DNA from: Halorhabdus sp. BNX81
Lineage (GTDB): Archaea; Halobacteriota; Halobacteria; Halobacteriales; Haloarculaceae
Assembly: GCF_029229925.1 (NCBI RefSeq)
Contig: NZ_CP107254.1
Location: 2,294,001 to 2,358,000, forward strand
Reading direction: 5' to 3'
DNA length: 64,000 nucleotides
Shown here: piece by piece, positions 1 through 14,460 of the stretch
Layout: the number at the start of each line of letters is the position of its first letter
How positions within the stretch are numbered: position 1 is the stretch's first letter
Notes under the pieces: model-generated
What the model saw: the letters and a program-made list of their open reading frames with translations, nothing else
Told to the model about the DNA's origin: nothing
Databases searched by the model: none
Position numbers and translations under genes: made by a program

Positions 1-154
1 GCCGCGCGCCGTCGGAGATCCGAACGAACGGGGTCGGCTTCCCCCCGAGGGGGACCATCGTTTCGAGTGTGACCTGTGTGGCACCTTCGACGCGGAGGAT
101 CTGCCCCAACTCGAATGCCTCCGAGGGGATTGTGAGCTCGACGATGACACTCAT
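1..154 (-). CDS. Bat-like/HTH-10 transcriptional regulator, N-terminal fragment
   Basis: The gene starts with ATG at 154-152 and runs off the left edge, so about 51 residues are visible. They begin MSVIVELTIPSEAFELGQIL, which resembles the N-terminal sensor domain of haloarchaeal bacterio-opsin-activator-like (HTH-10) regulators. These proteins carry a C-terminal helix-turn-helix that lies outside this window. The family assignment rests only on the conserved N-terminus (known family pattern). The regulated genes cannot be inferred. The 246 bases between it and the next gene hold a 12-bp palindrome at 257-268 and nothing else I can support. Confidence 0.6.
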   Translation of the reverse strand, partial: MSVIVELTIPSEAFELGQILRVEGATQVTLETMVPLGGKPTPFVRISDGAR

Positions 155-256
155 GGGATATTCGCGTCTTCACTGGCAATACCGTTAAAGTCTCCCCGGT
201 AGCGACGTGCTCGCCGACGTTCGGGCATGATGCACCATGCTTTTCGGTAGTACTAT

Positions 257-268
257 CCCTCGCGAGGG
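257..268. repeat. 12-bp perfect palindrome
   Basis: CCCTCGCGAGGG lies about 100 bp upstream of the Bat-like regulator start and 130 bp upstream of the 63-aa gene. It could be a protein-binding site or a small hairpin. In GC-rich DNA a 12-bp palindrome can occur by chance, so the call is weak. Confidence 0.3.
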
Positions 269-400
269 GCTACCGGGTGGTACAGAGATGACAGTTGGGC
301 TGGCGAGATCCGCCAGTCAGGCGACGATCCATCGTGACGACCGGTTGCGGCGTCGCCGACCCGAATCGGTCGGCGACTTGCTGTCTTCTGTCCACCGATC

Positions 401-592
401 ATGAACCCCGATCTTCCCGACGACGAACTCACGAATTCCGAGGACTTCGAGCGGACGCTCGGGCGGGTACTGCTCTCGGCACTCGCCGGCGACGTCGACC
501 CGCGCGGATCCTGGGTGTACCGAACTGACGGGGCCGGCCCTGATCTAGAGGTCATGGTCGTCGAACTCGAAGGGCAAAGCGGGAGCGACTAG
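401..592 (+). CDS. Small acidic protein, function unknown
   Basis: This 63-residue protein (starts MNPDLPDDEL) is acidic, with a short core FERTLGRVLLSALAGDVDPRGSW that could form a helix. It has no membrane segment and no zinc ligands. Its amino-acid bias is typical of haloarchaeal cytosolic proteins, which supports coding. It sits about 125 bases upstream of the sensor kinase on the same strand and may be co-expressed with it. I do not recognise a function. Confidence 0.6.
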   Translation: MNPDLPDDELTNSEDFERTLGRVLLSALAGDVDPRGSWVYRTDGAGPDLEVMVVELEGQSGSD

Positions 593-717
593 CCGGTCCG
601 ATTCCCGGACAGCCGATCGGGCGCGCATGATTTCTGCCAGAGTTGACAGCCAATCTGTCTTTACTGCCATGGTGTGCCACCTGCTGTCTTCTTGCAATCG
701 GGCATCGGATCAAACGT

Positions 718-1857
718 ATGGGAAACACGCCAGTGGGCCATGAACGGGCCGAGCCGAGCGATGACGTGGCACCAGTCGCCCAGCGCCTCGTCGAGAGTAT
801 CGACTCACATGCCATATTCATGTTAGACAGCGACGGTGCGATCACGGAATGGCCGCCACCGGCGACAGCAATGTACGGCTACGACGCGGAAAGGGTACTC
901 GGCGAAGACGTGAGTAGCCTGTTCACTGACGGTGACGGGTCTGAAGCCGGCGATCCGCCGGACGGCTTCCTCGATGACGCGACCGAAGGGACCGTCGAGG
1001 TCGAGCACTGGCACGAACGCGCCGACGAATCCGTGTTCTGGGGAACGCTGACGCTATCGCCGCTTTCGGGCGACGACGAAGGGTTCGCAGCCATCAGTCA
1101 CGACGAGACGACGGCAAAGGAGTACGAGCGGATGCTCGAACGCCAGAACGACCGTCTCAAGGAGTTCACGGACATCCTCGCCCACGACCTCCGGAATCCC
1201 CTTTCTGTCATCGACGGAAACCTGGCACTCTACGAGGAGACCGGCGACGACGCCCACATCGAGACGATCAAGGAGACGACGGACCGGATGGCCCGCCTCG
1301 TCGAAGACTTGCTCCGGGTGGCCCGACAGGGGGATGTCGTCACCGACCCGGAACCGACCGACATCGGCGAAGTGGTCGAGAAGGCCAGACCGGTCGTCGA
1401 CACCACCGCCGGCGGGACCTTCGTCTATCACGAGGTCCCGACGGTGAGTGGCGACGCGGACAGGCTCTGTCAGCTGTTCGAGAACCTCTTCCGGAACGCC
1501 GTGGAACACAGTTCCACGAGCCCTGACTCGCAAGCTCGTCAGAACGCGGTCGAACACGGCTCGGCGAGCCCGGACACCCACACCGGAGGAGGAACACCGG
1601 GCAATAGCGGGACGGTGACGATCACCGTCGGACCGCTCGAAACCGGGTTCTACGTCGAGGACGACGGCCCCGGGATTCCGGACGAACAAAAAGAAGACGT
1701 CTTCGACCACGGGTTCACGACGAGTGGCGACGGCAGCGGCTACGGACTCTCGGTCGTCCGGACGATTGTCAACGCCCACGGGTGGGACATCCTGGTCACG
1801 GACAGCGACACCGGCGGTGCGCGCTTCGAGATCACCGGCATCGACTTTCTGGAGTGA
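718..1857 (+). CDS. PAS-domain sensor histidine kinase
   Basis: This 379-residue soluble kinase has an N-terminal PAS-like domain (about residues 20-120), then HisKA with the phospho-acceptor box HDLRNP (His156). A HATPase domain follows with the N-box (FENLFRNAVEH), DDGPGIP and a G2 box around SGYGLSVV. No transmembrane helix is visible, so it probably senses a cytoplasmic or redox signal. I chose ATG 718 because the upstream in-frame ATG at 643 adds 25 residues unlike a PAS N-terminus. The N-box is followed by a duplicated 16-residue unit (NAVEHSSTSPDS / NAVEHGSASPDT). No response regulator is adjacent, as is common for haloarchaeal orphan kinases. Confidence 0.85.
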   Translation: MGNTPVGHERAEPSDDVAPVAQRLVESIDSHAIFMLDSDGAITEWPPPATAMYGYDAERVLGEDVSSLFTDGDGSEAGDPPDGFLDDATEGTVEVEHWHERADESVFWGTLTLSPLSGDDEGFAAISHDETTAKEYERMLERQNDRLKEFTDILAHDLRNPLSVIDGNLALYEETGDDAHIETIKETTDRMARLVEDLLRVARQGDVVTDPEPTDIGEVVEKARPVVDTTAGGTFVYHEVPTVSGDADRLCQLFENLFRNAVEHSSTSPDSQARQNAVEHGSASPDTHTGGGTPGNSGTVTITVGPLETGFYVEDDGPGIPDEQKEDVFDHGFTTSGDGSGYGLSVVRTIVNAHGWDILVTDSDTGGARFEITGIDFLE

Positions 1858-1920
1858 CCGGGACGCGACGAGCGTCGACCGTGGTTGTTTAAGGTCCGCC
1901 CGTCCGCACCGGGAGACGTA

Positions 1921-2742
1921 ATGACTGTACCCAACGACTACGACGTCGAGGGCGAGGTGTGTGTGATCACCGGCGGGGCAGGCGTGCTGTGTTCGGAAAT
2001 GGCGATCGCGCTCGGTGAACAGGGCGCGACGGTCGTCGTACTCGACATCGATAGCGAGGGACTCGCCGAGGTCGCCGCGGCGCTTGAGGATGTCGACGCC
2101 GAGTACATGACACTGGAGGCGTCGGTGCTCGACCGGGCGGAACTGGACGCGGCGGCGGAGACGGTCGTCGACGAATACGGCCGGATCGACGTGCTCATCA
2201 ACGGCGCTGGCGGCAACAGCCCCGAGGCGACCACGGACGAGGAGACGGACTTCTTCGGGCTCGACGCCGCGGGCGTCGAGAACGTCTTCAATCTCAACTT
2301 CCTGGGGACGTTCCTGGCGTCCCAGGCCTTCGGCGAGTACATGGCCGAGCAGGGCGAGGGCCACATCCTCAACGTCTCCTCGATGAACGCCTTCACGCCG
2401 CTGACGAAGATCCCCGCCTATTCGGGGGCGAAAGCCGCCGTCTCGAACTTCACGGAGTGGCTGGCCGTCGACATGGCCCAGAATCACTCGCCAGACATCC
2501 GGGTCAATGCGATCGCGCCTGGCTTCCTGCTGACCGAGCAAAACCGCTATCTGTTGCTCGACGACGACGGCGATCTGACCGAGCGTGGCCAGCAGATCAT
2601 CGATCACACGCCCCAGGACCGCTTTGGCGACCCCGAGGACCTGCTCTCGACCGTGCTCTGGCTGATCGCCCCCGGCTCCGAGTTCGTCACCGGGGCCGTC
2701 ATCCCCATCGACGGCGGCTTTGCGGCGTTTAGTGGGGTTTAA
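1921..2742 (+). CDS. SDR oxidoreductase, D-mannonate oxidoreductase type
   Basis: This 273-residue short-chain dehydrogenase has the cofactor loop TGGAGVLC at residues 17-24, LINGAGG in place of NNAG, and the catalytic Tyr-x3-Lys pair at Tyr167/Lys171 (YSGAK). The segment SSMNAFTPLTKIPAYSGAK and the ending DGGFAAFSGV closely resemble the SDR-type D-mannonate oxidoreductase (YjmF/UxuB-like). That enzyme reversibly reduces D-fructuronate to D-mannonate in glucuronate breakdown. ATG 1921 gives the standard N-terminus; an in-frame ATG at 1885 would add 12 residues. The neighbours do not encode other uronate enzymes, so the substrate is inferred from family resemblance. Confidence 0.8.
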   Translation: MTVPNDYDVEGEVCVITGGAGVLCSEMAIALGEQGATVVVLDIDSEGLAEVAAALEDVDAEYMTLEASVLDRAELDAAAETVVDEYGRIDVLINGAGGNSPEATTDEETDFFGLDAAGVENVFNLNFLGTFLASQAFGEYMAEQGEGHILNVSSMNAFTPLTKIPAYSGAKAAVSNFTEWLAVDMAQNHSPDIRVNAIAPGFLLTEQNRYLLLDDDGDLTERGQQIIDHTPQDRFGDPEDLLSTVLWLIAPGSEFVTGAVIPIDGGFAAFSGV

Positions 2743-2814
2743 GGAGAGGGATTTGCGACGGGGCGAGATTTTGCAGTAGTGGTGAGATATGGATTTGGAT
2801 CGATTGAGACCACT

Positions 2815-2922
2815 CTGAAAGCCCTCCCCAGTTCCGGTCCCGCGACTCGTTGCGGTCCTCACTACGTTGCGGTCCTTACGTCGTCGAGGTTCCCGGAACT
2901 GACTCGCCCTTTCAGTCCACCA
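2815..2922 (+). repeat. Variable-arm palindromic element 1
   Basis: The element is bounded by CTGAAAG (2815-2821) and CTTTCAG (2909-2915), followed by TCCACCA. Inside them a 9-bp perfect inverted repeat (CAGTTCCGG 2829-2837, CCGGAACTG 2893-2901) encloses about 55 bases rich in CTACGTTGCGG-type sequence. The end sequences match those of the two elements at 7567-7832, but the arm sequence is unrelated. It fills the 283-base gap between the SDR and the restriction-methylase gene. It may be a non-autonomous mobile element or a structured transcript or terminator. Confidence 0.65.
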
Positions 2923-3025
2923 GGATTCGGCTGGATAGCCGTCAGAAAGGAGTTCTTTGACCGGCGCTTATCTGAACACCGCCGGACAGGCCTCCGTCAT
3001 CTATTTGTGGTTGCCAGCGGCCAGT

Positions 3026-6000
3026 ATGACCCATTCAATGAGTCAGGCGACCCTGTCCGACCGGCCGTACGTCAACTCGGCCCTGTTTTCGAGTCACTAT
3101 CTGGACGAGCGCGTGATCGAGCGCGAGGAGTGGGACTGCGACGAGGAAGCGCGGGAAGCGATGGAGCGCCTCCAGTCGCTCTACGATCTCGAGGGGGGCG
3201 TCGTCGACGGGTACGGCGAGGACGCCCTCGTCGACAACTGGATCGACGGGGTGCTCGACGTGCTCGGGTTCGGGACACAGAAGGAGGTTACCCTGCCGGA
3301 CGGTGACGGCTACGTCGACGAATTGCTGTTTGGCAGTTCGGCCGAGCGTCGCGAGGCCGCGAAGGTGAACCTCGACACGGACGACACGACGGACCTCTTT
3401 ACGCGCGGGGTCGGACTGGTCGAAGCCAAGCAGTGGGATGCCGACTTCACCGCGGAGTTCAGCGAGCGCCGGCCCTACCGCAACGCCTCCCACCAGATCA
3501 AACACTATCTGGAGAAGACGCCAGCGAACATCCAGTGGGGCGTGCTGACGAACGGCCGGAAGTGGCGGCTCTACGGGACCAAGGACTACGAGACCCAAAC
3601 CTACTTCGAGATCGACCTCCCCGAGATTCTTGAATCAGGTGATCTGGAGGCGTTCAAGTATTTCTACGTCTTCTTCCGGCCGGACGCCTTCCGGAAAACT
3701 GCCGGGACGACGTTTCTCGACGAAGTGCGCTCGGAGAGTGAGACTGCCTCCCAGGAACTCGGCGAGGACCTGCAGGACAACGTCTTCACGGCGTTGCGGG
3801 TGCTCGGGCGTGGGTTCGTCGAATCGAACGACATGGACATCGATCCCGACGACGAGGCGGCGCTTGCCGAACTCAAAGAGCAGTCGCTCGTGTTGCTCTA
3901 CCGGTTGATGTTCGTCCTCTACGCCGAGGCGCGCGAGCTAATCCACCCCGAGGAGCCGTCGACCCAGGACGAATACGAGGAGAACTTCAGTCTGGACGCG
4001 CTGCGCATGGAGATTCACGACGAGATCGGCGAGGTCGACGAGGGCTTCGAGTCGGCGTTCAGCGAGCACTCGACGACGATGTGGACTCGACTGGAGGACC
4101 TGTTCTCGCTGATCGACGAGGGCGAAGAGGACCTCGGGATTCCGGCGTACAACGGCGGGTTGTTCGATCACGACCAGCACGCGTTCCTGACGGACCACGA
4201 GGTGAGCAACCGGTATCTCGCGGAGGTGATCTACCGGCTGTCGACGACGGAGAACGACGACGGGCGGTACGTGCTGGCGGACTACGCCGACCTGGACACG
4301 CGCCACCTCGGCAGCGTCTACGAGGGCCTGCTGGAGCATCACTTCCGCATCGCGCCGGAGCAGTACGCCGCTGTCTCGGCGGACGGCGGGCAGGTCTGGA
4401 AGCCGGCCGGCGAGGTGACAGTCGCCGACGCGGTGGAGACGGTCCCCGAAGGTGGGCTGTACGTCGTCAACGACGAGGGCGAGCGTAAGGCGACGGGGGC
4501 GTACTACACGCCCGACTACGTGGTGACGTACATCGTCGAGGAGACGATCGGTCCCCTCGTGGCGGAGATTCACGAGGATCTGCAATCCCAGGGGTTCGAG
4601 CGCGGGACCCAGGAGTACATCGGGCCGTTCATCCGGCGGGTGACGGATCTGCAGATCCTCGATCCGGCGATGGGGAGCGGGCACTTTCTGACGCGGGCGA
4701 CGGAGTACCTCGCCAACGAGGTGATGGTGGAGGTCCGGGAGGTCGAATCGGCGATGGGCGTCGCCATCGACGAACAGCAGATGCGCCGGGACATCGCCAA
4801 GGAGTGCATCTACGGCGTGGACATCAACGGCATGGCCGTCGAACTCGCGAAGCTGTCGATGTGGCTGGAGACGCTGGCGACCGACCAGCCCCTGGCCTTT
4901 CTCGATCACCACCTCAAGGCCGGGAACTCCCTGGTGGGGTCGGACGTGACGGACGTGCTCAGCGAGGACGACGAGGAGGACGATAGCGGGCAGTTGACGC
5001 TGACGCAGGCCTTCGGTCGCGTGCGTCGGGACACCCTGGATCACGTGATGGACCTGATGGCGGACCTGCTGGCGATGGACAACGAGACCTTAGAGGACGT
5101 CCACTCGATGGAGGACCTCTACGAGCAGATCCAGGACGACCCACTCTACCGCCGGTTGTTCGAGTTGACGAACGTCCACACCGCCGAGCAGTTCGGGGTG
5201 GACGTGCCCGAGGACGCCTACGAGCAGATGGCCGACGCCATCGAGGACGAGGCGGAGTGGGACGAGATTCAAGGGGAAGACTGGTTCGAGGACGCCCAGG
5301 CGCTGGCCGACGAGCAGACCTTTTTCCACTGGGAACTCGAGTACCCCGGCGTGTTCTTCGACGAAGACGGGGAAGAGCGTGCGGACGCCGGGTTTGATGC
5401 GGTAATTGGGAATCCGCCATACATTAGGATCCATCGTGTTGGACACGATCTTACTGACTATCTATTTGACAGTTATGGCACTTGTTCAAATAAATCAGAC
5501 CTCTCAATCCCATTCTTGGAAAGAGGATTTAAATTAATCTCACAGAGAGGATTCACCGGCTATATTTCTACTTCACAGTGGGTTTCAACTGATTACGGAG
5601 AGAGCGTTCGATCCTTTATGTCCAACGGGAAAGTTGCTAAAGTCCTCGACTTTGGAACGTTACCTGTTTTCAAAGGGATCTCGACCTACCCTGCGATATT
5701 CATCTTGTCTGGTTCAGCATCAGAGAACATGGAGTATGCAAAAGTAGAGAATGAATCACAGTTGACTACCGACGCAATTGATCGCTTACAGTTTCGGAAA
5801 CTATCATATGAGAGATTTGATCGTGAGCCCTGGGTGTTTGATGGTCTTGACCTCCGAGCAACGATTTCAGAGAGATCGAAAACTGCTCCTCTCTCCTCTC
5901 TTGGAGAGTTCAAAATTGGCGCATTAACTGGGATGGACGACGTTTTCGTGGTTGATCAGGACACCATTGATGAGCATGATCTTGAAGAGGACTTGATTTT

Positions 6001-7324
6001 CCCATATGCATATCAAGGAGAAGAAATACAGCGATATGCGACTGTCGAACCTGATGAATTTGTTATTTATCCCTATTCCGAAGGCGACGATGGAGACAGT
6101 AAACTTCTCCCAGAACAGGTTTTAGAATCCGAATATCCAAATATCCACTCATACTTTGAGCGTCATAAACAAGATCTTCGAGAAAGGCAGGACTCTAGAA
6201 AGTTCTACGCAAAAGGTCCAGATTGGTATCGGTTCTTGCGACAGGGTCGTTTTGACTACATCACCCCGCCTAAGCTACTGATTAAAGGAGTCGCCACACA
6301 CTCTTGTGTTGGATTTCTTCCTGACGACACTCTTTTCAGCGGGGCAAACTGCCCCGGCCTTATATTAAACTCAGAGAATATATCTCAGGATATACTACTC
6401 GGCATATTGAATTCGAATCTTATCTCCGAGTATTTGGTTCAAGTATGTCCTGCAAAGATGCAGAACTATACTCGATTTAATGCGAATAACTTGAACGATA
6501 TTCCGATTGTTGTCCCAGAACAGGATGTTGCACTAGATATGAGTTCACATCTCTCAGAACAATCTCAGAAAACTCTTAAGGATCTTATCGGCTCCATGGA
6601 GACTTCGTTCTATGTTTCGATTGAGAGAGGGTCTGAGGAACTGCGTTCATTGAGAGATCAACTGATTTCGCTTAATCTCTCCCTCCTCGACCACCTCGGC
6701 TCCTACTCGGATGGCCCGACCCTCGCGGACGTGGGCCTCACCCAGCCGCCGGAGGGCGCGGCCGACTCGATCCTCACCCAGACCACCGAGGAGCGCCCGA
6801 ACCTCCGCGTCGGCGAGGCCACGGTCGTCCGGGAGTCGCCCACGGCGGTCGAGATCCGCCTCACAGCGCGGTACAAGCCGGACGATAGCGAGACGCGACC
6901 GGCGGGAGCGTCTCGTTCAGATCGAACGGGCGAAGCCCGTGAGATAGCTCATGAGACCGACCAGTGGGGCTACACCGAGACCGAGCCGTTGCCGGCGTTG
7001 CGGATTTCGGACCTCACCGCAGCGGAGGCGGACCTGCTCGAGCACTTCGTGCCCGTTGCCGTCGACGAGGCCGGTGGGTTCGCGGACTTCCGCGAGACCG
7101 CCACGAAGACCAACTCGCCCGTCGATCGCCTGCGAAAGCTGACGCTGCCCGCCGTCGATGACGTGCAGGCGGGGCTAGAGAGCTACGTCGAGACGAAGGA
7201 ACGCGCCGACGAACTGGAGGCGAAGCTCGAGCGCACCGACGACCTGATCGATGAAATTGTGTATGAGTTGTACGGGTTGACCGACGAGGAAATCAGGATC
7301 GTCGAAGAAGCGGTTGGGGAGTAG
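3026..7324 (+). CDS. Type IIG/BREX-like restriction-modification enzyme (fused nuclease-methyltransferase)
   Basis: This protein of about 1,430 residues has an N-terminal PD-(D/E)xK nuclease-like region (…GLVEAKQWDAD, about residue 130). A helical region, an N6-adenine methyltransferase domain (ATGAYYTPDYVV; motif I DPAMGSGHFL; motif IV NPPY near residue 800), and a C-terminal specificity region follow, then a coiled coil ending EEIRIVEEAVGE. This order fits Eco57I-like type IIG enzymes; PglX is an alternative. Bases about 5,400-6,680 are far more AT-rich than the flanks (37% against 70% GC in 60-base hand counts), starting at the NPPY motif. ATG 3026 lies about 22 bases after a TATA-like CTATTT, which fits a leaderless start; ATG 3038 is an alternative. 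Confidence 0.85.
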   Translation: MTHSMSQATLSDRPYVNSALFSSHYLDERVIEREEWDCDEEAREAMERLQSLYDLEGGVVDGYGEDALVDNWIDGVLDVLGFGTQKEVTLPDGDGYVDELLFGSSAERREAAKVNLDTDDTTDLFTRGVGLVEAKQWDADFTAEFSERRPYRNASHQIKHYLEKTPANIQWGVLTNGRKWRLYGTKDYETQTYFEIDLPEILESGDLEAFKYFYVFFRPDAFRKTAGTTFLDEVRSESETASQELGEDLQDNVFTALRVLGRGFVESNDMDIDPDDEAALAELKEQSLVLLYRLMFVLYAEARELIHPEEPSTQDEYEENFSLDALRMEIHDEIGEVDEGFESAFSEHSTTMWTRLEDLFSLIDEGEEDLGIPAYNGGLFDHDQHAFLTDHEVSNRYLAEVIYRLSTTENDDGRYVLADYADLDTRHLGSVYEGLLEHHFRIAPEQYAAVSADGGQVWKPAGEVTVADAVETVPEGGLYVVNDEGERKATGAYYTPDYVVTYIVEETIGPLVAEIHEDLQSQGFERGTQEYIGPFIRRVTDLQILDPAMGSGHFLTRATEYLANEVMVEVREVESAMGVAIDEQQMRRDIAKECIYGVDINGMAVELAKLSMWLETLATDQPLAFLDHHLKAGNSLVGSDVTDVLSEDDEEDDSGQLTLTQAFGRVRRDTLDHVMDLMADLLAMDNETLEDVHSMEDLYEQIQDDPLYRRLFELTNVHTAEQFGVDVPEDAYEQMADAIEDEAEWDEIQGEDWFEDAQALADEQTFFHWELEYPGVFFDEDGEERADAGFDAVIGNPPYIRIHRVGHDLTDYLFDSYGTCSNKSDLSIPFLERGFKLISQRGFTGYISTSQWVSTDYGESVRSFMSNGKVAKVLDFGTLPVFKGISTYPAIFILSGSASENMEYAKVENESQLTTDAIDRLQFRKLSYERFDREPWVFDGLDLRATISERSKTAPLSSLGEFKIGALTGMDDVFVVDQDTIDEHDLEEDLIFPYAYQGEEIQRYATVEPDEFVIYPYSEGDDGDSKLLPEQVLESEYPNIHSYFERHKQDLRERQDSRKFYAKGPDWYRFLRQGRFDYITPPKLLIKGVATHSCVGFLPDDTLFSGANCPGLILNSENISQDILLGILNSNLISEYLVQVCPAKMQNYTRFNANNLNDIPIVVPEQDVALDMSSHLSEQSQKTLKDLIGSMETSFYVSIERGSEELRSLRDQLISLNLSLLDHLGSYSDGPTLADVGLTQPPEGAADSILTQTTEERPNLRVGEATVVRESPTAVEIRLTARYKPDDSETRPAGASRSDRTGEAREIAHETDQWGYTETEPLPALRISDLTAAEADLLEHFVPVAVDEAGGFADFRETATKTNSPVDRLRKLTLPAVDDVQAGLESYVETKERADELEAKLERTDDLIDEIVYELYGLTDEEIRIVEEAVGE
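6888..6958 (+). repeat. Hairpin-rich in-frame insert inside the restriction-methylase gene
   Basis: Within the 3' part of the gene are consecutive inverted repeats: GAGACGC/GCGTCTC, ACGGGCGAAGCCCGT, and smaller ones. They encode the low-complexity string GASRSDRTGEAREIAHE between two well-behaved protein segments. The sequence style (GGGCGAAGCCC with a short loop) matches the intergenic hairpins near the tRNA genes, not the surrounding coding sequence. The reading frame stays open. Confidence 0.5.
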
Positions 7325-7404
7325 CATCAGCAGAGCGGAGTGAGGCTATTGCCGCCGAAAATATGACGTAAGTGCCATTAGAACCCACTACGTCGAATCT
7401 TCCA

Positions 7405-7530
7405 ATGTGTGAGACAGCCAGCGAGAAAGGGGATGAGATGGTTCAGGAGACTATCAACCAGGCTGTCGAAGACGTGAAAGCGCTCGACTTTGCGACGTTC
7501 GCAGAGGTCACAGAAGCGTTCCGCCGGTAG
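7405..7530 (+). CDS. Possible 41-residue protein or gene remnant
   Basis: ATG 7405 opens a 41-codon frame, MCETASEKGDEMVQ…ATFAEVTEAFRR. It is acidic, predicted helical and haloarchaeal in composition. It sits 80 bases after the restriction-methylase gene. It could be a small protein or the N-terminal stub of a longer gene cut off by the palindromic elements that follow. I recognise no domain. Confidence 0.35.
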   Translation: MCETASEKGDEMVQETINQAVEDVKALDFATFAEVTEAFRR

Positions 7531-7566
7531 AACCCAGTCCAAGTGAGAGCCAGGCCAGAGGATGCA

Positions 7567-7689
7567 AACAGCGTGAAAGCCCCGAGTCGTTCGAGTCGGG
7601 AGACTCGCTGCGCGCTTCCCTCACTACGTTCGGTCCAGTGCTTGCTTCGCCTGCCTTCCCCGAACGACTCGCCCCTTTCATTCCCACCC
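7567..7689 (+). repeat. Variable-arm palindromic element 2
   Basis: The left end is AACAGCGTGAAAGCCCC (7567-7583) and the right end CCCCTTTCATTCCCACCC (7672-7689). The internal arms GAGTCGTTCG (7584-7593) and CGAACGACTC (7661-7670) pair perfectly over 10 bp. The ends match elements 1 and 3 and the arms do not. It faces element 3 head to head across a 26-base spacer. Together with element 3 it accounts for most of the 7,531-7,922 non-coding stretch. Confidence 0.7.
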
Positions 7690-7715
7690 ATGTCAGCTGG
7701 TTAATCGGCCGACAC

Positions 7716-7832
7716 GGGTGGGAATGAAAGGGGCCGGCCGTCTGCGGGAACCCGGGCGAGACAAGCACCGCAGCAACGCGAGGAGCGCAGCGAGCCCCGG
7801 GACCGCAGACGGCCGGGGGCTTTCACGCTGTT
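7716..7832 (-). repeat. Variable-arm palindromic element 3
   Basis: This copy is inverted relative to element 2. Its end GGGTGGGAATGAAAGGGG (7716-7733) is the exact reverse complement of the right end of element 2 (18 bp). Its other end GGGGCTTTCACGCTGTT (7816-7832) is the exact reverse complement of the left end (17 bp). Its own internal arms CCGGCCGTCTGCGG (7734-7747) and CCGCAGACGGCCGG (7803-7816) pair over 14 bp and differ from those of elements 1 and 2. Confidence 0.7.
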
Positions 7833-7922
7833 CATGGCTGAAATAGCAGTGTCTCCGAACATCACCATATCTCACACCCCAATGAATTAAGCGATCCCCC
7901 TCACAACACGGAACCAGTCCAG

Positions 7923-8351
7923 ATGTCGGAACGCCTCCGAGACTTCGTCGCGGACGAACTCTGGCTGGCGATCGGTGCGCTCACGCTGGGAGTCATGATG
8001 CTGTTCGACACGGTCGAACTGGAAGCCCTCTCAGAAGTCTCGTTGATCCTCGGCTGGTTCGTGCTGACGCCCCTGTTTCTGTTCTGGGGTGAGGAAGTCG
8101 CGGCTGTACTCTTTTCGAGCGACGAGAGTGAATCCACAGATCAAAACGAGGCGGCGATCGAGCGGCTCAAGCGACGGTACGCGGAGGGCGAGATCGACGA
8201 GCGGGAGTTCGAACAGCGCCTCGATCGGCTGGTCGCGACTGAGGAAGGAGGTCCGACTGACTACGATGACCTGACGGCGAGCGATCGCTCCAGTGCGTCG
8301 ACCGGGGCGGATACACGCGACGGTGCCGAGCGAGAGCGCGAGCTGGAGTGA
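7923..8351 (+). CDS. SHOCT-domain membrane protein
   Basis: This 142-residue protein has two hydrophobic segments (about residues 13-32 and 38-60). A C-terminal SHOCT motif follows (AIERLKRRYAEGEIDEREFEQRLDRLV, about residues 76-102), then an acidic, Ser-rich tail. SHOCT is a short oligomerisation module often fused to membrane domains in haloarchaea. The gene begins right after the palindromic-element region. Its role is unknown; it is probably a small inner-membrane oligomer. Confidence 0.8.
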   Translation: MSERLRDFVADELWLAIGALTLGVMMLFDTVELEALSEVSLILGWFVLTPLFLFWGEEVAAVLFSSDESESTDQNEAAIERLKRRYAEGEIDEREFEQRLDRLVATEEGGPTDYDDLTASDRSSASTGADTRDGAERERELE

Positions 8352-8499
8352 GACGGACGAATCTCCAGGTATCCCACGACGGCAGTCGCTACTGAAGGCT
8401 GTTCGCGACGGGAATGGGACAACGCGGATATCAACTCCCTTGTCCTACGTCGCTTGAGAGAGCACATCGCGAAACACGCACTCCTTGGATATCGAACGT

Positions 8500-8700
8500 C
8501 CGCCGAGCGAAGCGAGGCGGTTCACTGCGACGGAGCGAAGCGACCGAGCAGGTGTTTTTGGTCCAGATTTTTGCGAGTCGAGCGGGACCGGAGGTCCCGC
8601 TGACCATGCGAACGGACGCTTCGCGTCCGTGAGCAGAAGGGGTTCCCGCAACGAGCCATCGGCTCGTGAGGAAACCCTCCGAAGTAAAAAGGTGGTATAG
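8500..8700. repeat. Hairpin-rich non-coding stretch beyond tRNA-Ile array
   Basis: The stretch has no convincing gene but several short perfect hairpins with 3-nt loops: AGCGGGACC/GGTCCCGCT (8581-8601) and ACGGACGC/GCGTCCGT (8612-8630, loop TTC). A nested stem with GGGTTCC…GGAAACCC also occurs (8640-8678). Runs of T (8554-8558, 8568-8572) and of A (8686-8690) flank the hairpin block. The hairpin style is the same as in the tRNA-Asn and tRNA-Arg arrays. Confidence 0.55.
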
Positions 8701-8857
8701 TGGGCCAAACCGGATTTGAACCGGAGCAAGACGTTCCGGGGACGCTCACTCCGTTCACGTCCCGGGCTGCGACTTGCAGGGTTCAAATCCGCTCGGATCA
8801 ACGAGTTCGCGCTCACAGGCTCGTCGCTACGCTCCTCGCATTGTTCGCGCAGAATAG
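8698..8857 (-). repeat. tRNA-Ile tail array: duplicated tRNA 3' end plus 81-nt element
   Basis: Bases 8698-8724 are an exact 27-nt copy of 8855-8881, the 3' end of the tRNA-Ile gene plus its flank. Between them lies an 81-nt element (8711-8791) with outer arms CGGATTTGAAC/GTTCAAATCCG, which reproduce the T-arm of this tRNA. Its core reads, on the tRNA strand, AAGTCGCAGCCCGGG … CCCCGGAACGTCTTGC. The core recurs next to tRNA-Asn and tRNA-Arg. The remaining bases 8792-8850 hold a direct repeat of GTTCGCGC. Confidence 0.75.
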
Positions 8858-8931
8858 TGGGCCAAACCGGATTTGAACCGGTAGCCTCCCGGTTATCAGC
8901 CGAGCGCTCAACCTGATTGAGCTATTGGCCC
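8858..8931 (-). tRNA. tRNA-Ile (GAT anticodon)
   Basis: The 74-nt cloverleaf starts GGGCCAATAGCTC. The acceptor GGGCCAA pairs with TTGGCCC, the anticodon loop is CTGATAA (GAT), the T-arm is CCGG-TTCAAAT-CCGG, and the discriminator is A. No intron is present and CCA is not encoded. It is transcribed leftward, and its 3' flank carries the duplicated tail array. No rRNA is adjacent, so this is a stand-alone isoleucine tRNA gene. Confidence 0.95.
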
Positions 8932-9011
8932 AGGTGAGCGCATCAAGGCGTACCGGAGGGCTACCATTAAGCGTTTCTTTTCGCTCCCGTCGTCACCCTC
9001 GTGGCTGGCGA

Positions 9012-9593
9012 TCACTCGGTGCGATCGTCCCCGTCCTCAACGTCGTCGAGGTCCTGGGCCTCACCGATGTCGCGGACCCCATCGTCCGTCGCGCCGCCGA
9101 TACCCCCGATCCCGCCGGGCCCACCGAATCCACCGGGACCGCTGGAATCACCGCCGACAGGGCCGTCCCCGTCGTCGTTCGGAAAGCCACCGACGTAGAC
9201 CGAGCCGGTGGCGAACCCGCCGGTCTTCTTTTCGAGGTAGGGCGTGACGACCCACTTCTTCAGTGCGAGGCGGACTGGATATCTGGTCGGCGGGATCACG
9301 AGGACGAAGCCGATCACGTCGGTCACCAGCCCGGGAGTCAACAGCAGCGCGCCGGCGATCAACAGGAGCGCGCCGTCGAGCAACTCGTCGGTCGGTGCCT
9401 CCCCCTGGAGGACCTTCCGCTGGATCTTCGCGATCGTGTGGCGGCCCTCCGCACGGACGAGCAACATGCCGATCAGTCCCGTCAGCACCACGAGCAACAC
9501 TGTCGGGACGGCACCCAGCTCACCGGCAACCACGACTAGCATCACCATGTCGACGAGAGGTATCAACAGCAGGAGCGCGATGATCCGGAGCAT
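9012..9593 (-). CDS. fxsA: FxsA family membrane protein
   Basis: This 193-residue protein begins MLRIIALLLLIPLVDMVML. Hydrophobic segments lie near residues 3-20, 28-45 and 70-100, with the typical FxsA feature of acidic/basic residues around LVRAEGRHTIAKIQRKVLQGE. The tail is Gly/Asp rich (GGFGGPGGIGGIGG) and should be disordered. FxsA in bacteria relieves phage exclusion; the archaeal role is unknown. I chose ATG 9593 because the upstream in-frame ATG adds nine non-conserved residues ahead of the first helix. It follows tRNA-Ile and is on the same strand as mptA. Confidence 0.85.
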   Translation of the reverse strand: MLRIIALLLLIPLVDMVMLVVVAGELGAVPTVLLVVLTGLIGMLLVRAEGRHTIAKIQRKVLQGEAPTDELLDGALLLIAGALLLTPGLVTDVIGFVLVIPPTRYPVRLALKKWVVTPYLEKKTGGFATGSVYVGGFPNDDGDGPVGGDSSGPGGFGGPGGIGGIGGATDDGVRDIGEAQDLDDVEDGDDRTE

Positions 9594-9650
9594 GCCGCCC
9601 CCTACCGGGCGGGGCCTCAAAACCCTTTTCGAGCGAGTGCGACTGCCGGA

Positions 9651-10649
9651 TTACCGGTCGCCGGAGCCGTTCGTCCGCCGGTCGACGCTGCCGGTCTCCG
9701 GATCGGGATTCCCACCGCTTGCGTCACCGTTGACCTCGTCGATGAGATCGGCGAAGCGGGCGACGCGCTCGGCGTGAGCGTTGTGCTGGTGGATCGACTC
9801 GTCGTTGGACTGCTCCATCCGAATGACAGCATCCGCGGGCAAGCCGGGGAACGTCTCGACGACGCCCTCGGCCAGCGACCGGACGCAGTCCTCGACAAAC
9901 TTGGCGTCGCTGTGGGCCTCGTAGGTCATGTGATCCTCGTCGGGTCGCTTCGCGAGGTTGTAGATGTGGGCGCTCATCGCATCGCGGGCGACCTCGATGA
10001 CGTCCCGAAGGTCAAGATCGGGTGCGCCGTCACTTTCGATGGTGAGCGTGGCGTGGCCGCGCTGGGAGTGGCCGGCCTGGGGGACTTCATCGAGGAATGT
10101 GTCGATAGTCTCTCGATCGACGTCGAGGTCGTTCAGCGTCTGGCGGGCGCGTGACTCACTCATTCCCTGTGAACAGGGACAGACCGTCATGCCGGTGACA
10201 CGCGCGCCGAGTTCCTCCCGAGTCCCCTCGTCGGTCGCGGTCGCGGAGGCGATGATGTCGGCAGTGCTCTGGGTCGGGCGGTCGCTTTCGGGCGTGCGCT
10301 CGCGGGTGACGTACTCGGCCTCCATGCGCACCTCGGCGCGGTCGGTGTAGTCGTGTTTCCCGAGGAGGCGCTCGGCGGCGTCACCACAGACGTCCTCGAC
10401 GCGATAGCCGGTGTTGTCGACGGCGGCTTCGAGCGTCTCGTCGATGACCTCCATGTTGCGACTCATGTCCGCCCCTTTCCGCCAGGTGGGGAGGTCGACG
10501 AAGACGTCGAACGTCGCCATCAGGACGATCGGTCGTCGGTCCTCGCGGTCGATCTCGACGAGTTTCTCGACACCGGTGACGCCGACGCGGTTGAGTCCGA
10601 CGGCGACCTCCGGACTGTTCGCCTGCACGTCCGGGAGTTGCTTGCTCAT
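9651..10649 (-). CDS. mptA: GTP cyclohydrolase MptA (GTP cyclohydrolase IV)
   Basis: This 332-residue enzyme makes 7,8-dihydroneopterin 2',3'-cyclic phosphate from GTP, the first step of archaeal (methano/tetrahydrofolate-type) pterin synthesis. It shows the FolE2/MptA signatures [12 protein letters not shown] (Cys-containing metal site), [12 protein letters not shown] and the C-terminal [21 protein letters not shown]. Length is normal for the family plus a short disordered tail. It is a single-gene unit about 60 bases upstream of fxsA on the same strand. The folate pathway link fits the SHMT and purine genes elsewhere in the window. Confidence 0.93.
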
Positions 10650-10752
10650 TCGGGTCGTCGTAGGGCTGAATCCCGGTTAGGGCTTTCGAAAGGGGTGGTG
10701 CTGGCCGCACTCCAAACGTACCGAAAACCGCGAGACTGAAGTCGGAAATCAC

Positions 10753-11769
10753 TCACTCGAGGTCGACGACGACTTTCCCCTGATGGTCACCACGATCGAC
10801 GTACCGATAGGCATCCCGGACCGCGTCGAACGCGAATACCCGATCGATAACGGGGTCCATCTCGGCCGTCTCCATGGCGGCGAGCATGCGGTCGAACATC
10901 GCGCGACTTCCCACGCCAGTGACACCCTCGACGTCGACGGCTTTCCCCAGGATCGGCCCCGGGTGGACCAGTCCGTCCTGCCCGGCGAGGACGCCGATGA
11001 GATGGACGTGCCCGCCGAAACCGACGGCCACCAGGGACTGTTCGAGCGTGCCCGGGCCGCCGACCTCGACGACGTGGTCGACGCCGCCGGTTGCCTCGGC
11101 GACGGCTTCGCCCCATTCGGGGGTCGACTCGTAGTTGATCGTCACGTCGGCACCGAGGTCGCGGGCCCGGTCGAGTTTCGCGTCGCTGGAGGAGGTGACG
11201 ACGGTGCGTGCGCCGTGCATCGTCGCGAACTGGAGCGCGAACGTCGAGACGCCGCCGGTTCCCAGCGCGAGGACCGTCTCGTCGGCACTGAGCCCGCCAT
11301 CCTCGATCAGCGCTCGCCACGCCGTCAGCCCCGCACACGAGAGTGCGGCACCGCCCGTATACGAGAGGTACTCCGGGAGGCGCGGCAGGCTCTCGGCGGG
11401 GAACGTGGCGTACTCGGCGAGGGCCCCGTCGACGTTCCCACCCGTCGTCCGCCGGGTCTTCTCGGGAGTCGCGGGGCCGTCGATCCAGTCGGGGGCAAAC
11501 GGCGTCGCGACGCGATCACCTTCCGAGAGGCGCTCGACCCCCTCGCCGACCGCGACGACCTCACCGGCCCCGTCGGAGAACGGGACGACCGGGAGACTCG
11601 CGCCGGGATACGCGAGGTCGGCGTTGGCGATCGCCAGATCGCGGTAGTTCAGCGACGCCGCGTGGATCCGGACGAGCGCCTCATCGGCGGCCGGGGTCGG
11701 CCGGTCGCGATCGACCTGCACGACACCCTCGTAGTCGGTATCGGGTTCAGTGACTTCGTAGGCTCGCAT
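10753..11769 (-). CDS. Zinc-type alcohol dehydrogenase / quinone oxidoreductase family protein
   Basis: This 338-residue medium-chain dehydrogenase has a GroES-like N-terminus (LNYRDLAIANADLAYPG, about 45-60) and a nucleotide-binding domain with VLALGTGGVSTFALQFA (about 166-182). It ends in a typical YRYVDRGDHQGKVVVDLE. The usual zinc ligand cysteines (GHE … CxxCxxC) are absent, so it looks like the NAD(P)-dependent, zinc-independent branch. The substrate cannot be told. It is monocistronic by spacing. Confidence 0.85.
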   Translation of the reverse strand: MRAYEVTEPDTDYEGVVQVDRDRPTPAADEALVRIHAASLNYRDLAIANADLAYPGASLPVVPFSDGAGEVVAVGEGVERLSEGDRVATPFAPDWIDGPATPEKTRRTTGGNVDGALAEYATFPAESLPRLPEYLSYTGGAALSCAGLTAWRALIEDGGLSADETVLALGTGGVSTFALQFATMHGARTVVTSSSDAKLDRARDLGADVTINYESTPEWGEAVAEATGGVDHVVEVGGPGTLEQSLVAVGFGGHVHLIGVLAGQDGLVHPGPILGKAVDVEGVTGVGSRAMFDRMLAAMETAEMDPVIDRVFAFDAVRDAYRYVDRGDHQGKVVVDLE

Positions 11770-11818
11770 CGGTCTCCGGAAGAAGGGGCGGTTCGTACTT
11801 GAGTCCTGTGCCGGGGAT

Positions 11819-12499
11819 TCAGGGGACGACGCCGACGGTCAGCAGCGTGCCGTGCTCGCGGAAGTGCTCGACCATCGCCTCGCGGGTCTTCCAGTCCTCG
11901 GTCGGAAACTCCGCGGCGGGCGGGATCTCGACCTCCTCGTCGGGGATCGCCTCCTGTTCGGCGACGTGAAACCCGGCCTCACGGAACGCCTCGCGGTACT
12001 CAGCCCGCGACCACCGGGTCATGGCGACGTCGACGTACTCGTCCCATTCGGCGGTGTGGGGGTTGTCCGCGACGTAGTCGACCGCACAGTAGAAGGTCCC
12101 GCCCGGGCGCAGGACGCGCCGGAGTTCCCGAAGCGCTTCGACGGGATCGGGGGCGTAGTAGATGGCCTCCATCGAGAAGGCGTGATCGACGCTGTCGGTC
12201 CCAAAGGGGAGATGTTGAAAGTCACCCACCAGGAACCCGACGGCCGCGTCGTCGGTGTACTCGCGGGCGTTGGTCGCCATTTGAGGCGAGCGGTCGAGCC
12301 CGTAGGCGCGCCCGGCCCCGCCGGCCGCCCGGAGCGCGCGGGCGGCGTAGCCGCTGCCACAGCCGAGATCGAGCACCACGTCGCCGTCCTCGACCGGCAT
12401 CCGACCGAGCGCGTGTTTGGCCGTGTGCCAGTGTCGTTGTTCCATCCCACGATCCTTCCCTGCCTCGGCCCACTCATCGAAGGCGTCGCCGACGCTCAT
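11819..12499 (-). CDS. Class I SAM-dependent methyltransferase
   Basis: The 226-residue protein has the Rossmann motif I VLDLGCGSGYAARALR (about 43-58), an acidic residue after strand 2 (YGLDRSPQM) and motif post-II GDFQHLPFGTDSVDHAFSMEAIYY. An LRRVLRPGGTFYCAVDY strand follows, typical of UbiE/small-molecule methyltransferases. ATG 12499 is preferred; two codons upstream is another ATG. The substrate is unknown. It is divergent from the ABC exporter genes, with a 138-base intergenic region. Confidence 0.85.
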   Translation of the reverse strand: MSVGDAFDEWAEAGKDRGMEQRHWHTAKHALGRMPVEDGDVVLDLGCGSGYAARALRAAGGAGRAYGLDRSPQMATNAREYTDDAAVGFLVGDFQHLPFGTDSVDHAFSMEAIYYAPDPVEALRELRRVLRPGGTFYCAVDYVADNPHTAEWDEYVDVAMTRWSRAEYREAFREAGFHVAEQEAIPDEEVEIPPAAEFPTEDWKTREAMVEHFREHGTLLTVGVVP

Positions 12500-12637
12500 A
12501 CGCACACTCGAAGCGCGATCGGCAAAACCCGTTCGTCTCGCGTCCTGATCGGGACCGGGACGTGTGGCCTTTCCCGGCCGTCCGTCGATGGGTATTTGGT
12601 GATTGAACGTTTACTCAACGGCGGACACACGACCCAT

Positions 12638-13693
12638 ATGGACACCATTCAGGTCCAGGATTTACGCAAGGAGTTCGAGTCGGTCACGGCCGTCGACGGC
12701 GTGTCCTTCGCCGTCGAGGACGGCGAGGTGTTCGGGCTACTCGGCCCCAACGGGGCAGGCAAGACCACGCTCATCAACATGCTGGTGACGTTGCTGGCCC
12801 CGACCGGCGGCACGGCGACAGTCGCCGGACACGACATCCACACTGAGCGAAACGCCGTCCGGGATAACCTCGGGATCGTCTTTCAGGAGCCGGCGCTCGA
12901 CGAGGAGCTAACCGGCGCGGAGAACCTGGCATTTCACGGCCGACTCTACGGGATGGACGCCGCGACGCGTCGCAAGCGGATCGACGAGGTGCTTGGCCTG
13001 GTCGGCCTCGACGCGGAGCGCGACGACCCGGTCGGGACCTACTCGGGAGGCATGAAGCGCCGGCTCGAAATCGGCCGCGGACTGCTCCACCGACCGACGG
13101 TCCTGTTTCTCGACGAGCCGACCGTCGGGCTCGACGCCCGGACGCGCCGGGACACCTGGGAGTACATTCAGAGACTCAACGAGGAATCGGGCGTCTCGAT
13201 CGTGATGACGACGCACTACATCGAAGAGGCCGAGAACCTGTGTGATCGCGTCGCCATCGTCGACGACGGCGAGATCGTGGCGATCGACACGCCGGGGACA
13301 CTCAAGGACGATCTCGGCGGTGACGTCGTGACGATGGACGTCACCGGGCCGGTCGACCAGCTTCTGGGCGAGCTCGGCACCCGCGAGTGGGTCGAAGACG
13401 CGACCCGGTCCGACGACAGCGTCCGCGTCGTCCTCGAACGTGGCGAGACTCGAATCGCCGACCTCGTCCGGATCGCCGACGACGCCGGGGTCACGATCGA
13501 CGCGATCGAACACCACGAGACGAGCCTGGAGGCGGTCTTCCTTGCGCTCACCGGGAACACCATCGCGGACGCCGAGGGCAACACCACCCAGGGCGCGGAT
13601 CCCACACTCGGGGACGGGGCCGATGGGCAACGGGTGACCGACCCCGCCGACATGCCCAACCAAGAACCAGTGCGGACGGAGAGTGACCGATGA
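12638..13693 (+). CDS. ABC transporter ATP-binding protein (DrrA-type exporter)
   Basis: This 351-residue ATPase has Walker A GPNGAGKT (about 36-43), the Q-loop FQEP, signature YSGGMKRRLEIG, Walker B VLFLDEP and an H-loop in TTHYIEEAE. After the nucleotide-binding domain, a C-terminal DrrA-like domain (about 225-310) and a disordered acidic tail follow. ATG 12638 lies about 25 bases after TTTACTC (TATA-like), consistent with a leaderless start. It pairs with the permease by an ATGA overlap. Such pairs export drugs, lipids or polysaccharide; the cargo is unknown. Confidence 0.92.
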   Translation: MDTIQVQDLRKEFESVTAVDGVSFAVEDGEVFGLLGPNGAGKTTLINMLVTLLAPTGGTATVAGHDIHTERNAVRDNLGIVFQEPALDEELTGAENLAFHGRLYGMDAATRRKRIDEVLGLVGLDAERDDPVGTYSGGMKRRLEIGRGLLHRPTVLFLDEPTVGLDARTRRDTWEYIQRLNEESGVSIVMTTHYIEEAENLCDRVAIVDDGEIVAIDTPGTLKDDLGGDVVTMDVTGPVDQLLGELGTREWVEDATRSDDSVRVVLERGETRIADLVRIADDAGVTIDAIEHHETSLEAVFLALTGNTIADAEGNTTQGADPTLGDGADGQRVTDPADMPNQEPVRTESDR

Positions 13694-14460
13694 ACCGCAT
13701 CGACCCGCGGAGCATCTACGCGCTGTGGCTGCGGGATGTCAAGCGCTTTCTCCGGACGCCCTCGCGGATCATCGGCTCGATCGCGCTGCCGCTGCTGTTT
13801 TTGCTGTTCCTGGGCACGGGCTTTAGCGGCGCGGCGATTCCCGGCCTTCCCGAAGACGTCGACTATCTTCAGTTCCTCGTCCCGGGGATGGTCGGCTTTA
13901 CGATGCTGTTCGGGGCCTCCTTCGCCGGGATGTCGATCCTCTCGGATCAGGAGGTCGGCTTTTTGAAGGAGATCCTCGTCGCGCCGGTGAGCCGGACGTC
14001 GATCGTTCTCGGGCGGACCGCCGGCGGGTCGACCACCGCGCTCGTCCAGGCGGTTCTCATCCTCGTGCTCGCGATCCCGCTGGGCTTCCGGCCAGTCAGC
14101 CTGCTCTCGTTGCCGCTGGCCGCCGCCTTTCTCGTCGGGATCGCAATCACGTTCGTCGGCTTCGGCATCGCGCTGGCCTCCCAGTTCAGCGACACCGAGG
14201 GGTTCGGACTCATCGTCAACTTCGTGATCTTCCCGCTGTTTTTCCTCTCGGGTGCGATGTTCCCGATCGACAGCCTCCCCGAGGTGATCCAGCCGCTGGC
14301 GTACCTCAACCCGCTGACCTACGGCGTCGACGGCCTCCGGGCGGTGCTGGTGGGGACCGCCGCGCGATCCGTCGCGATCGACGCCGGTGCCCTCCTCGTC
14401 TCTTCGGTCGTGATGGTGCAACTCGGCGCGGCGCTGTTCGAACGCGTCGAGTCAGTCTGA
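13690..14460 (+). CDS. ABC-2 type permease
   Basis: The 256-residue membrane protein has about six hydrophobic segments and the ABC-2 family features [15 protein letters not shown] (cytoplasmic loop) and [31 protein letters not shown] near the C-terminus. It starts four bases inside the upstream ATPase gene (ATGA), so translation is coupled and the two proteins form one exporter. Its end overlaps the convergent GIY-YIG gene by nine bases. Confidence 0.92.

What the first reader, a model, noticed from the sequence alone, without database searches (positions are those of the whole stretch)
5395..6685. Sharp AT-rich block inside the restriction-methylase gene, starting at the NPPY motif
GC falls from about 70% (4321-4380) to about 37% (5461-5520) at the codons of catalytic motif IV. 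It returns to host-like near 6,680, where codons for LNLSLLDHLGSY resume normal usage. The block covers the target-recognition region. This fits replacement of specificity by recombination from a lower-GC donor while the conserved shells stay, which would change the DNA site recognised.
Basis: partly seen in the sequence, partly recalled or inferred. Interest (0 to 1): 0.7.

Follow-up and report, generated by a model that had tools for sequence, protein, structure and literature searches.

The report
Swappable AT-rich specificity module in haloarchaea
A DNA-cutting defence enzyme of a salt-loving archaeon carries a sharply AT-rich central segment that sets which DNA word it recognises; across many relatives this segment is swapped freely between otherwise conserved enzymes and stays AT-rich whatever the host, so it is not the mark of one recent foreign donor.

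Summary
The block runs from motif IV (NPPY) to the end of an HsdS-like target-recognition domain (TRD).

Replacement by recombination is strongly supported. Congeneric shells are 84-93% identical, TRDs only 27-31%. Over 136 genes, shell and TRD similarity are uncorrelated (Mantel r -0.009). One pair shows a clean cassette swap.

The "lower-GC donor" half does not hold as stated. The block is AT-rich in 134 of 140 relatives. Its GC3 (mean 0.45) is unrelated to host GC3 (r -0.006), while the C-terminal shell tracks the host. The nearest TRDs lie in other haloarchaeal copies of the enzyme. Haloarchaeal HsdS subunits are also AT-rich; nine bacterial homologues mostly are not.

So: an ordinary specificity-swapping enzyme with an unexplained, order-wide compositional decoupling. 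An AT-rich TRD reservoir or escape from the haloarchaeal GC-raising force remain open.

The parts
3038..7324 (+). Type IIG-like restriction-modification gene, 1428 aa from the start MSQATLSDRPY (open frame from 2957)
   Evidence: Open frame 2957-7324; relatives begin at a similar MSQATL start; Eco57I, N6_Mtase and TaqI_C Pfam hits; PADLOC DrmMI and REase_MTase_IIG hits
3317..3496 (+). N-terminal PD-(D/E)xK-like nuclease residues D121, E156, K158, Q180
   Evidence: D121, K158 and Q180 in 141 of 141 aligned genes, E/D at 156 in 141 of 141; weak HSDR_N and MmeI_N hits
4661..4687 (+). Methyltransferase motif I, DPAMGSGHF
   Evidence: DPAMGS invariant in 141 of 141 aligned genes
5411..5422 (+). Methyltransferase motif IV, NPPY, just inside the left edge of the block
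   Evidence: NPP in 141 of 141 aligned genes; GC3 change-point at 5393
5393..6676 (+). AT-rich exchangeable cassette: second half of the methyltransferase fold plus the target-recognition domain
   Evidence: GC3 0.40 against 0.88; 27-31% identity to congeners against 84-93% in shells; DNA homology to G004 ends at 5425 and resumes at 6689
5849..6661 (+). S-subunit-like target-recognition fold inside the cassette
   Evidence: Model residues 466-736 (protein 965-1235) align to Esub1 (8vsq, Z 11.4, rmsd 2.9, 164 aligned); type I S subunit 1ydx aligns from model residue 473 (Z 10.7, rmsd 4.8); Pfam TaqI_C at residues 1019-1184
6677..7321 (+). Conserved C-terminal shell with a long helix, host-like codon usage
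   Evidence: GC3 0.84; conservation rises again at residue 1240; long helix in the model at protein residues 1400-1438

Best explanation
The gene encodes a haloarchaeal type IIG-like enzyme (nuclease, adenine methyltransferase and target-recognition domain in one chain). Its centre is an exchangeable specificity cassette: the second half of the methyltransferase fold from motif IV, plus an S-subunit-like TRD. Cassettes are swapped between copies of the enzyme by homologous recombination, with crossovers in the conserved stretch ending in GFDAVIGNPPY on the left and at the start of the C-terminal shell on the right (junctions and swap shown by comparison; recombination route, enzymology and changed site inferred). 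Its AT-richness is a standing property of the haloarchaeal TRD pool, kept in nearly every relative whatever the host's composition, not the mark of one recent low-GC donor. Why the pool is AT-rich (separate reservoir, or escape from the GC-raising force) is not settled.
For: GC3 step at residues 813 and 1240. Congeners 84-86% (N) against 27-31% (TRD). Among 14 pairs with N shells at least 95% identical, TRD median identity is 28.6% and one exceeds 50%. L218/L220: mostly over 90% DNA identity in the N shell, 19-44% in the block, 89-99% after it. L101/L216: shells 45% identical, TRD 68%, rising just after NPPY and falling at the C shell. Mantel N-TRD r -0.009 (199 permutations, p 0.67), N-C r 0.41 (p 0.005), 136 rows. 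TRD data reject the three-Halorhabdus clade (AU p 1e-7); shell data reject window+L130+L131 (p 8e-6). Block GC3 more than 0.1 below its own N shell in 134 of 140; unrelated to host-shell GC3 (r -0.006), while the C shell tracks it (r 0.62). TRD GC3 below that of flanking genes in 19 of 20 loci. HsdS 0.47 against HsdM 0.74, lower by over 0.1 in 26 of 27. Fold: BseCI, CamA and BrxX over MTase plus TRD, S subunits over the TRD.
Against: No methylome or activity data, so a changed recognition site is inferred. Window plus G004 alone as a TRD clade is not rejected (AU p 0.106), and long branches are present. Some genes have host-like TRDs (L251/L253, L223, L210, L139; 5 of 140 differ by under 0.05). 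HsdS GC3 partly follows its HsdM (r 0.50). Two of nine bacterial homologues also step down: Thermus 0.93 to 0.68, R. leguminosarum 0.69 to 0.56. The right edge is softer than the left across the family, and 31 of 139 C shells are over 0.2 below their N shell themselves.
Confidence: 0.82

Rival explanations
1. The block was imported recently from a specific lower-GC donor and has not yet ameliorated.
For: Both GC3 edges are sharp. The five lowest-contrast genes include two pairs whose TRD and shell diverged together (L251/L253, L139/L210), as expected if long-resident TRDs drift to host composition.
Against: AT-richness is family-wide (134 of 140). Nearest TRDs (43-49% identical) are in other haloarchaeal copies, not in a known low-GC genome. 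For 14 of 17 pairs of TRDs that look co-inherited with their shells, silent divergence is so high that relaxation to shell GC would need an ancestral GC4 under 0.25 or an impossible one (11 of 17 at the lower bound of divergence; pairs overlap). Two halovirus homologues have GC3 0.65-0.68 in this region.
Confidence: 0.15
2. TRDs circulate in a separate AT-rich reservoir of haloarchaeal mobile DNA (islands, plasmids, low-GC halophiles) and are drawn from it repeatedly.
For: TRD GC3 does not depend on the host. HsdS modules share the value, 0.47. The own genome has other AT-rich genes (GC3 0.33-0.47). Several relatives sit in regions of 51-55% GC.
Against: TRDs are lower in GC3 than flanking genes even in those regions (19 of 20 loci). 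No viral contig with a relative was found, and the two annotated halovirus enzymes measured are not that AT-rich.
Confidence: 0.4
3. TRDs sit at their own compositional balance in place: the force that lifts haloarchaeal GC above the mutational equilibrium is weak on segments with no homologous partner.
For: Mutational equilibrium is about 20% GC in Halobacterium salinarum (PMC9997560, passages); TRD GC3 of 0.45 lies between that and the shells. Putatively co-inherited TRD pairs stay AT-rich at high silent divergence.
Against: L251/L253, L139/L210, L223 have host-like TRDs. Most bacterial homologues show no step. The putative co-inherited pairs could be separate imports.
Confidence: 0.35
4. 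The block is AT-rich because of the amino acids it must encode.
For: None found.
Against: Expected GC3 from shell codon usage is 0.87 in the window and 0.78 over 141 genes; observed 0.40 and 0.45.
Confidence: 0.02
5. The cassette switches within this genome (inverton or silent cassettes).
For: Related loci show inverted halves with an integrase-family gene (L141), extra 3' fragments and contig ends clustered in the block.
Against: Only one match to the gene is in this genome, and no inverted repeats bracket the block.
Confidence: 0.04

Closest known systems
Domain movement of TRDs in Helicobacter pylori Type I and III systems (PMC3983042, passages read; PMC3077401, search listing only)
   Same: Target-recognition segments move between otherwise conserved specificity genes by recombination at flanking conserved sequence and change methylation motifs.
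   Different: Here in single-chain haloarchaeal enzymes across many genera, with a strong, host-independent AT-rich composition of the moving segment; the term 'GC content' does not occur in the text of PMC3983042.
Eco57I/MmeI-type type IIG enzymes
   Same: One chain with a PD-(D/E)xK-like N terminus, adenine methyltransferase and C-terminal TRD; MmeI (5hr4, Z 17.0, rmsd 4.2) and BpuSI (3s1s, Z 15.1, rmsd 12.3) align to the model.
   Different: Two of the three MmeI Pfam domains are below cut-off; activity untested.
DISARM DrmMI and BREX PglX methyltransferases
   Same: Best PADLOC model is DrmMI (E 7.5e-103, residues 496-1185); BrxX/PglX fold similarity Z 17-18.
   Different: No drm or brx gene was recognised among the open frames of window 1-14000 (read by eye); NCBIfam PglX scores are far below cut-off.

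Membership tests
Type IIG restriction-modification enzyme | Nuclease, methyltransferase and TRD in one polypeptide | tested here: met
   D121/(E,D)156/K158/Q180 and motifs I and IV conserved in 141 of 141; TaqI_C TRD; MTase plus TRD fold. The nuclease fold itself was not modelled
Type IIG restriction-modification enzyme | Cleaves unmodified and methylates its site | not testable with these tools
   No biochemical or methylome data
DISARM (DrmMI) | Adjacent drmA/drmB/drmD genes | tested here: inconclusive
   Open frames of 100 aa or more within 1-14000 were read by eye and none looked like SNF2, DrmA or DrmB; no profile search of the neighbours was made
BREX PglX | Score over NCBIfam cut-off for PglX | tested here: not met
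   113 bits against 400 (BREX-2), 107 against 500 (BREX-1), 53 against 900 (BREX-6)
TRD cassette exchange (domain movement type) | Near-identical flanks with unrelated centres | tested here: met
   L218/L220 and others; 14 shell pairs at 95% or more, TRD median 28.6%
TRD cassette exchange (domain movement type) | Same TRD in otherwise divergent shells | tested here: met
   L101/L216: N 45%, TRD 68%, C 50%
Phase-variable (invertible) specificity system | Alternative TRD copies with inverted repeats in the same genome | tested here: not met
   One match to the gene in the genome; no inverted repeats bracketing the block

The most novel reading that the evidence does not exclude
TRDs in haloarchaea are segments without homologous partners, shut out of the recombination-linked force (GC-biased conversion or selection through recombination) that holds haloarchaeal genes at high GC; they have relaxed part of the way toward the AT-rich mutational equilibrium. 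They would be a natural, repeated, within-gene control showing that high GC in these archaea depends on homologous exchange.
Probability: 0.2. Interest if true: 0.8.

Novelty: new variant of a known kind. Interest (0 to 1): 0.56.

Why it matters
TRD swapping is known, but a swapped module whose silent-site composition is independent of the host, order-wide, with the same AT-richness in a second system type (HsdS), is a strong regularity. It gives a cheap marker for specificity cassettes in GC-rich haloarchaea, warns against reading AT-rich TRDs as recent low-GC imports, and offers a within-gene contrast for asking what keeps haloarchaeal genomes GC-rich. No paper describing it was found in the open library (search listings, most papers not opened; subscription papers are mostly not held).

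Tried and rejected
Polarising silent substitutions with an outgroup: outgroups are saturated, the direction merely mirrors outgroup composition, so it is uninformative and not used. The first form of the saturation test was too lenient; one search replaced it with the ancestral GC required. Its 17 pairs are those of the 19 with an AT-rich TRD (L139/L210 and L251/L253 left out); they share members and were chosen for similar shell and TRD identity, so it is suggestive, not decisive.

Viral contigs: neither the TRD nor the N shell found a relative. A first AlphaFold job with 3 sequences was poor (pLDDT 36); the second with 70 was usable (80.5). The promoter/terminator scan gave nothing above chance. 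Coding constraint was rejected. Switching inside this genome was rejected. The methylome paper on Halorhabdus sp. SVX81 (PMC11001535, passages) reports strong methylation without a motif; whether the window is that strain could not be told.

Rows dropped: one search kept 141 distinct frames (window included) of at least 1150 aa whose shell match ran from query position 120 or below to 740 or above, out of 182 sources read (window and L020-L040, L100-L139, L141-L260); broken genes and duplicates fell out. The loci were chosen by me, mostly those with open frames over 1300 aa, and the match lists were themselves cut short. In one search two of 11 bacterial loci fetched (L295, L301; split genes) were not measured, and 27 of 30 HsdS loci had a recognisable HsdM tail. 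In one search the Mantel test used 136 of 141 rows. Tree tests used 27 rows.
Full report
What was checked. The open frame 2957-7324 gives a 1455-residue reading; relatives start at a similar MSQATL, which puts the likely start at 3038 (1428 aa). Residue numbers here follow the 2957 frame. The genus is Halorhabdus by inference: G003 contig C4 and the named Halorhabdus salina FL145 contig NZ_JACDNP010000012.1 have the same length, 63710, and G003 is of the window's genus.

The observation. The GC3 change-point is residues 813-1240, nt 5393-6676, 0.40 inside against 0.88 outside; log-likelihood gain 169. The block contains the lowest-GC stretch of the window and such stretches are rare in the genome: 0.44% of 1284-base windows in a 400-kb sample are at or below 43% GC. 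Codon usage, not amino acids, is responsible (expected GC3 0.87).

What the block is. Pfam places Eco57I at 616-905 and TaqI_C at 1019-1184. The nuclease residues D121, E/D156, K158, Q180 and motifs I and IV are kept in 141 of 141 aligned genes; that these four are the PD-(D/E)xK site is my assignment from the motif. An AlphaFold model of residues 500-1455 (70 sequences, pLDDT 80.5, pTM 0.65) matches M.BseCI (Z 25.4, rmsd 2.8, 409 aligned), CamA (Z about 25), BrxX/PglX (Z 17-18), MmeI (Z 17.0) and BpuSI (Z 15.1, rmsd 12.3). Its residues 466-736, protein 965-1235, align to Esub1 (8vsq, Z 11.4, rmsd 2.9, 164 aligned); S subunits of type I enzymes align from model residue 469-473 into the C-terminal helices (1ydx Z 10.7, rmsd 4.8; 2y7c Z 10.7, rmsd 8.0). 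So the block is the second half of the methyltransferase fold from motif IV plus a TRD with an S-subunit-like fold, ending where the TRD ends. Family conservation drops at residue 820, is lowest from 920 to 1240 and recovers at 1240.

Exchange. The congeners G004 and G003 have N shells of 86% and 84% and C shells of 93% and 87%, but block identities of 27% and 31% (15% for G003's C-terminal piece). DNA homology with G004 covers 2991-5425 and 6689-7337 and, apart from one 83-base match, nothing else in the flanks compared; the gene is broken in G004 and lies across contig ends in G003. Closest block relatives are L130 (47-49%) and L131 (43-48%), from two other families, one with a shell only 44-45% identical. 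In 14 shell pairs at 95% or more, TRD identity has median 28.6%, and one pair exceeds 50%. L218/L220 shows near-identical DNA, then an unrelated block, then near-identical DNA, and both blocks are AT-rich. L101/L216 shows the converse: a similar TRD in shells 45% alike. Mantel correlations are -0.009 (N-TRD) and 0.41 (N-C), 136 rows. Trees conflict: TRD data reject the three-Halorhabdus clade (AU p 1e-7) although window plus G004 alone is not rejected (p 0.106); shell data reject window+L130+L131 (p 8e-6).

Composition. Over 140 relatives the N-shell GC3 is 0.79 (sd 0.10), the block 0.45 (sd 0.10), the C shell 0.69 (139 rows). The block is more than 0.1 lower than its own N shell in 134 of 140, more than 0.2 lower in 117, and less than 0.05 lower in 5. 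Block GC3 is unrelated to N-shell GC3 (r -0.006, slope -0.006), while the C shell follows it (r 0.62, slope 1.1). The mean profile drops over about 20 codons before NPPY and recovers over about 100 codons after position 1241. TRD GC3 is below that of flanking genes in 19 of 20 loci, including loci in regions of 51-55% GC. HsdS of haloarchaea has GC3 0.47 against 0.74 for the adjacent HsdM, more than 0.1 lower in 26 of 27, though partly correlated (r 0.50). Of nine bacterial homologues seven step down by 0.06 or less, Thermus by 0.25, R. leguminosarum by 0.13; two halovirus enzymes step by 0.06 and 0.01.

What that means. A single recent low-GC donor cannot explain a family-wide, host-independent low GC in TRDs that are unrelated to each other. 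Two readings remain. In one, TRDs come repeatedly from an AT-rich reservoir. In the other, they hold their own balance because the force that keeps haloarchaeal genes GC-rich is weak on them; mutation accumulation puts the mutational equilibrium of Halobacterium salinarum near 20% GC (PMC9997560, passages). For the second: in 14 of 17 pairs of TRDs that look co-inherited, silent divergence is too high for simple relaxation toward shell GC from a plausible start (11 of 17 at the lower bound). For the first: pairs L251/L253 and L139/L210, in which TRD and shell diverged together, have host-like TRDs, as expected if residence raises GC; and the pairs overlap and were picked for similar divergence. 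I cannot decide between them.

Verdict. The enzyme is a member of a known kind, and cassette exchange is a known mechanism (PMC3983042, passages). The order-wide decoupling of TRD composition from the host is the part I did not find described (open library only). The surveys of haloarchaeal and archaeal RM systems read in passages (PMC6471742; PMC10609329) do not use the term GC content.

Noticed in passing
G003, G379, G355, G426, G332, G298, G364 (two), G155, G115, G222 (L109, L142-L149, L153, L155): Draft-genome contig ends cluster in the AT-rich block: 11 there against 3 in the nearly twice longer N shell (hand count, binomial p 0.0012; counted after the pattern was seen). Could be IS insertions, repeated TRDs or mixed cultures.
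   Followed up: partly
L141 (G412): 3382-5481 minus, 5712-6998 plus, 7002-9005 plus: The gene is split into inverted halves (N part forward, TRD plus C part reverse) with a phage-integrase-family frame between them.
   Followed up: partly
L151:3945-5060 minus: An IS66-family transposase frame lies inside the block region of the gene in G217; annotated plasmid copies in Haloarcula and Halobacterium also carry transposases within the match.
   Followed up: no
L119:6802-7355 and 11374-11586; L033:13038-13127; L038; L037; L141:1903-2163; L159:649-849: Extra copies of the gene's 3' end lie downstream or alone (three in L119), as if whole genes were repeatedly replaced or lost at these places.
   Followed up: no
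window:8697-8724 and 8854-8881: A perfect 28-base repeat of the 3' part of tRNA-Ile (8857-8931, minus), like an integrase attachment-site duplication.
   Followed up: no
L319:2464-8519 (own genome, near 2.12 Mb): Another strongly AT-rich island (down to 40% GC) with an 804-aa pentapeptide-repeat and ion-channel-like frame and unknown genes.
   Followed up: partly
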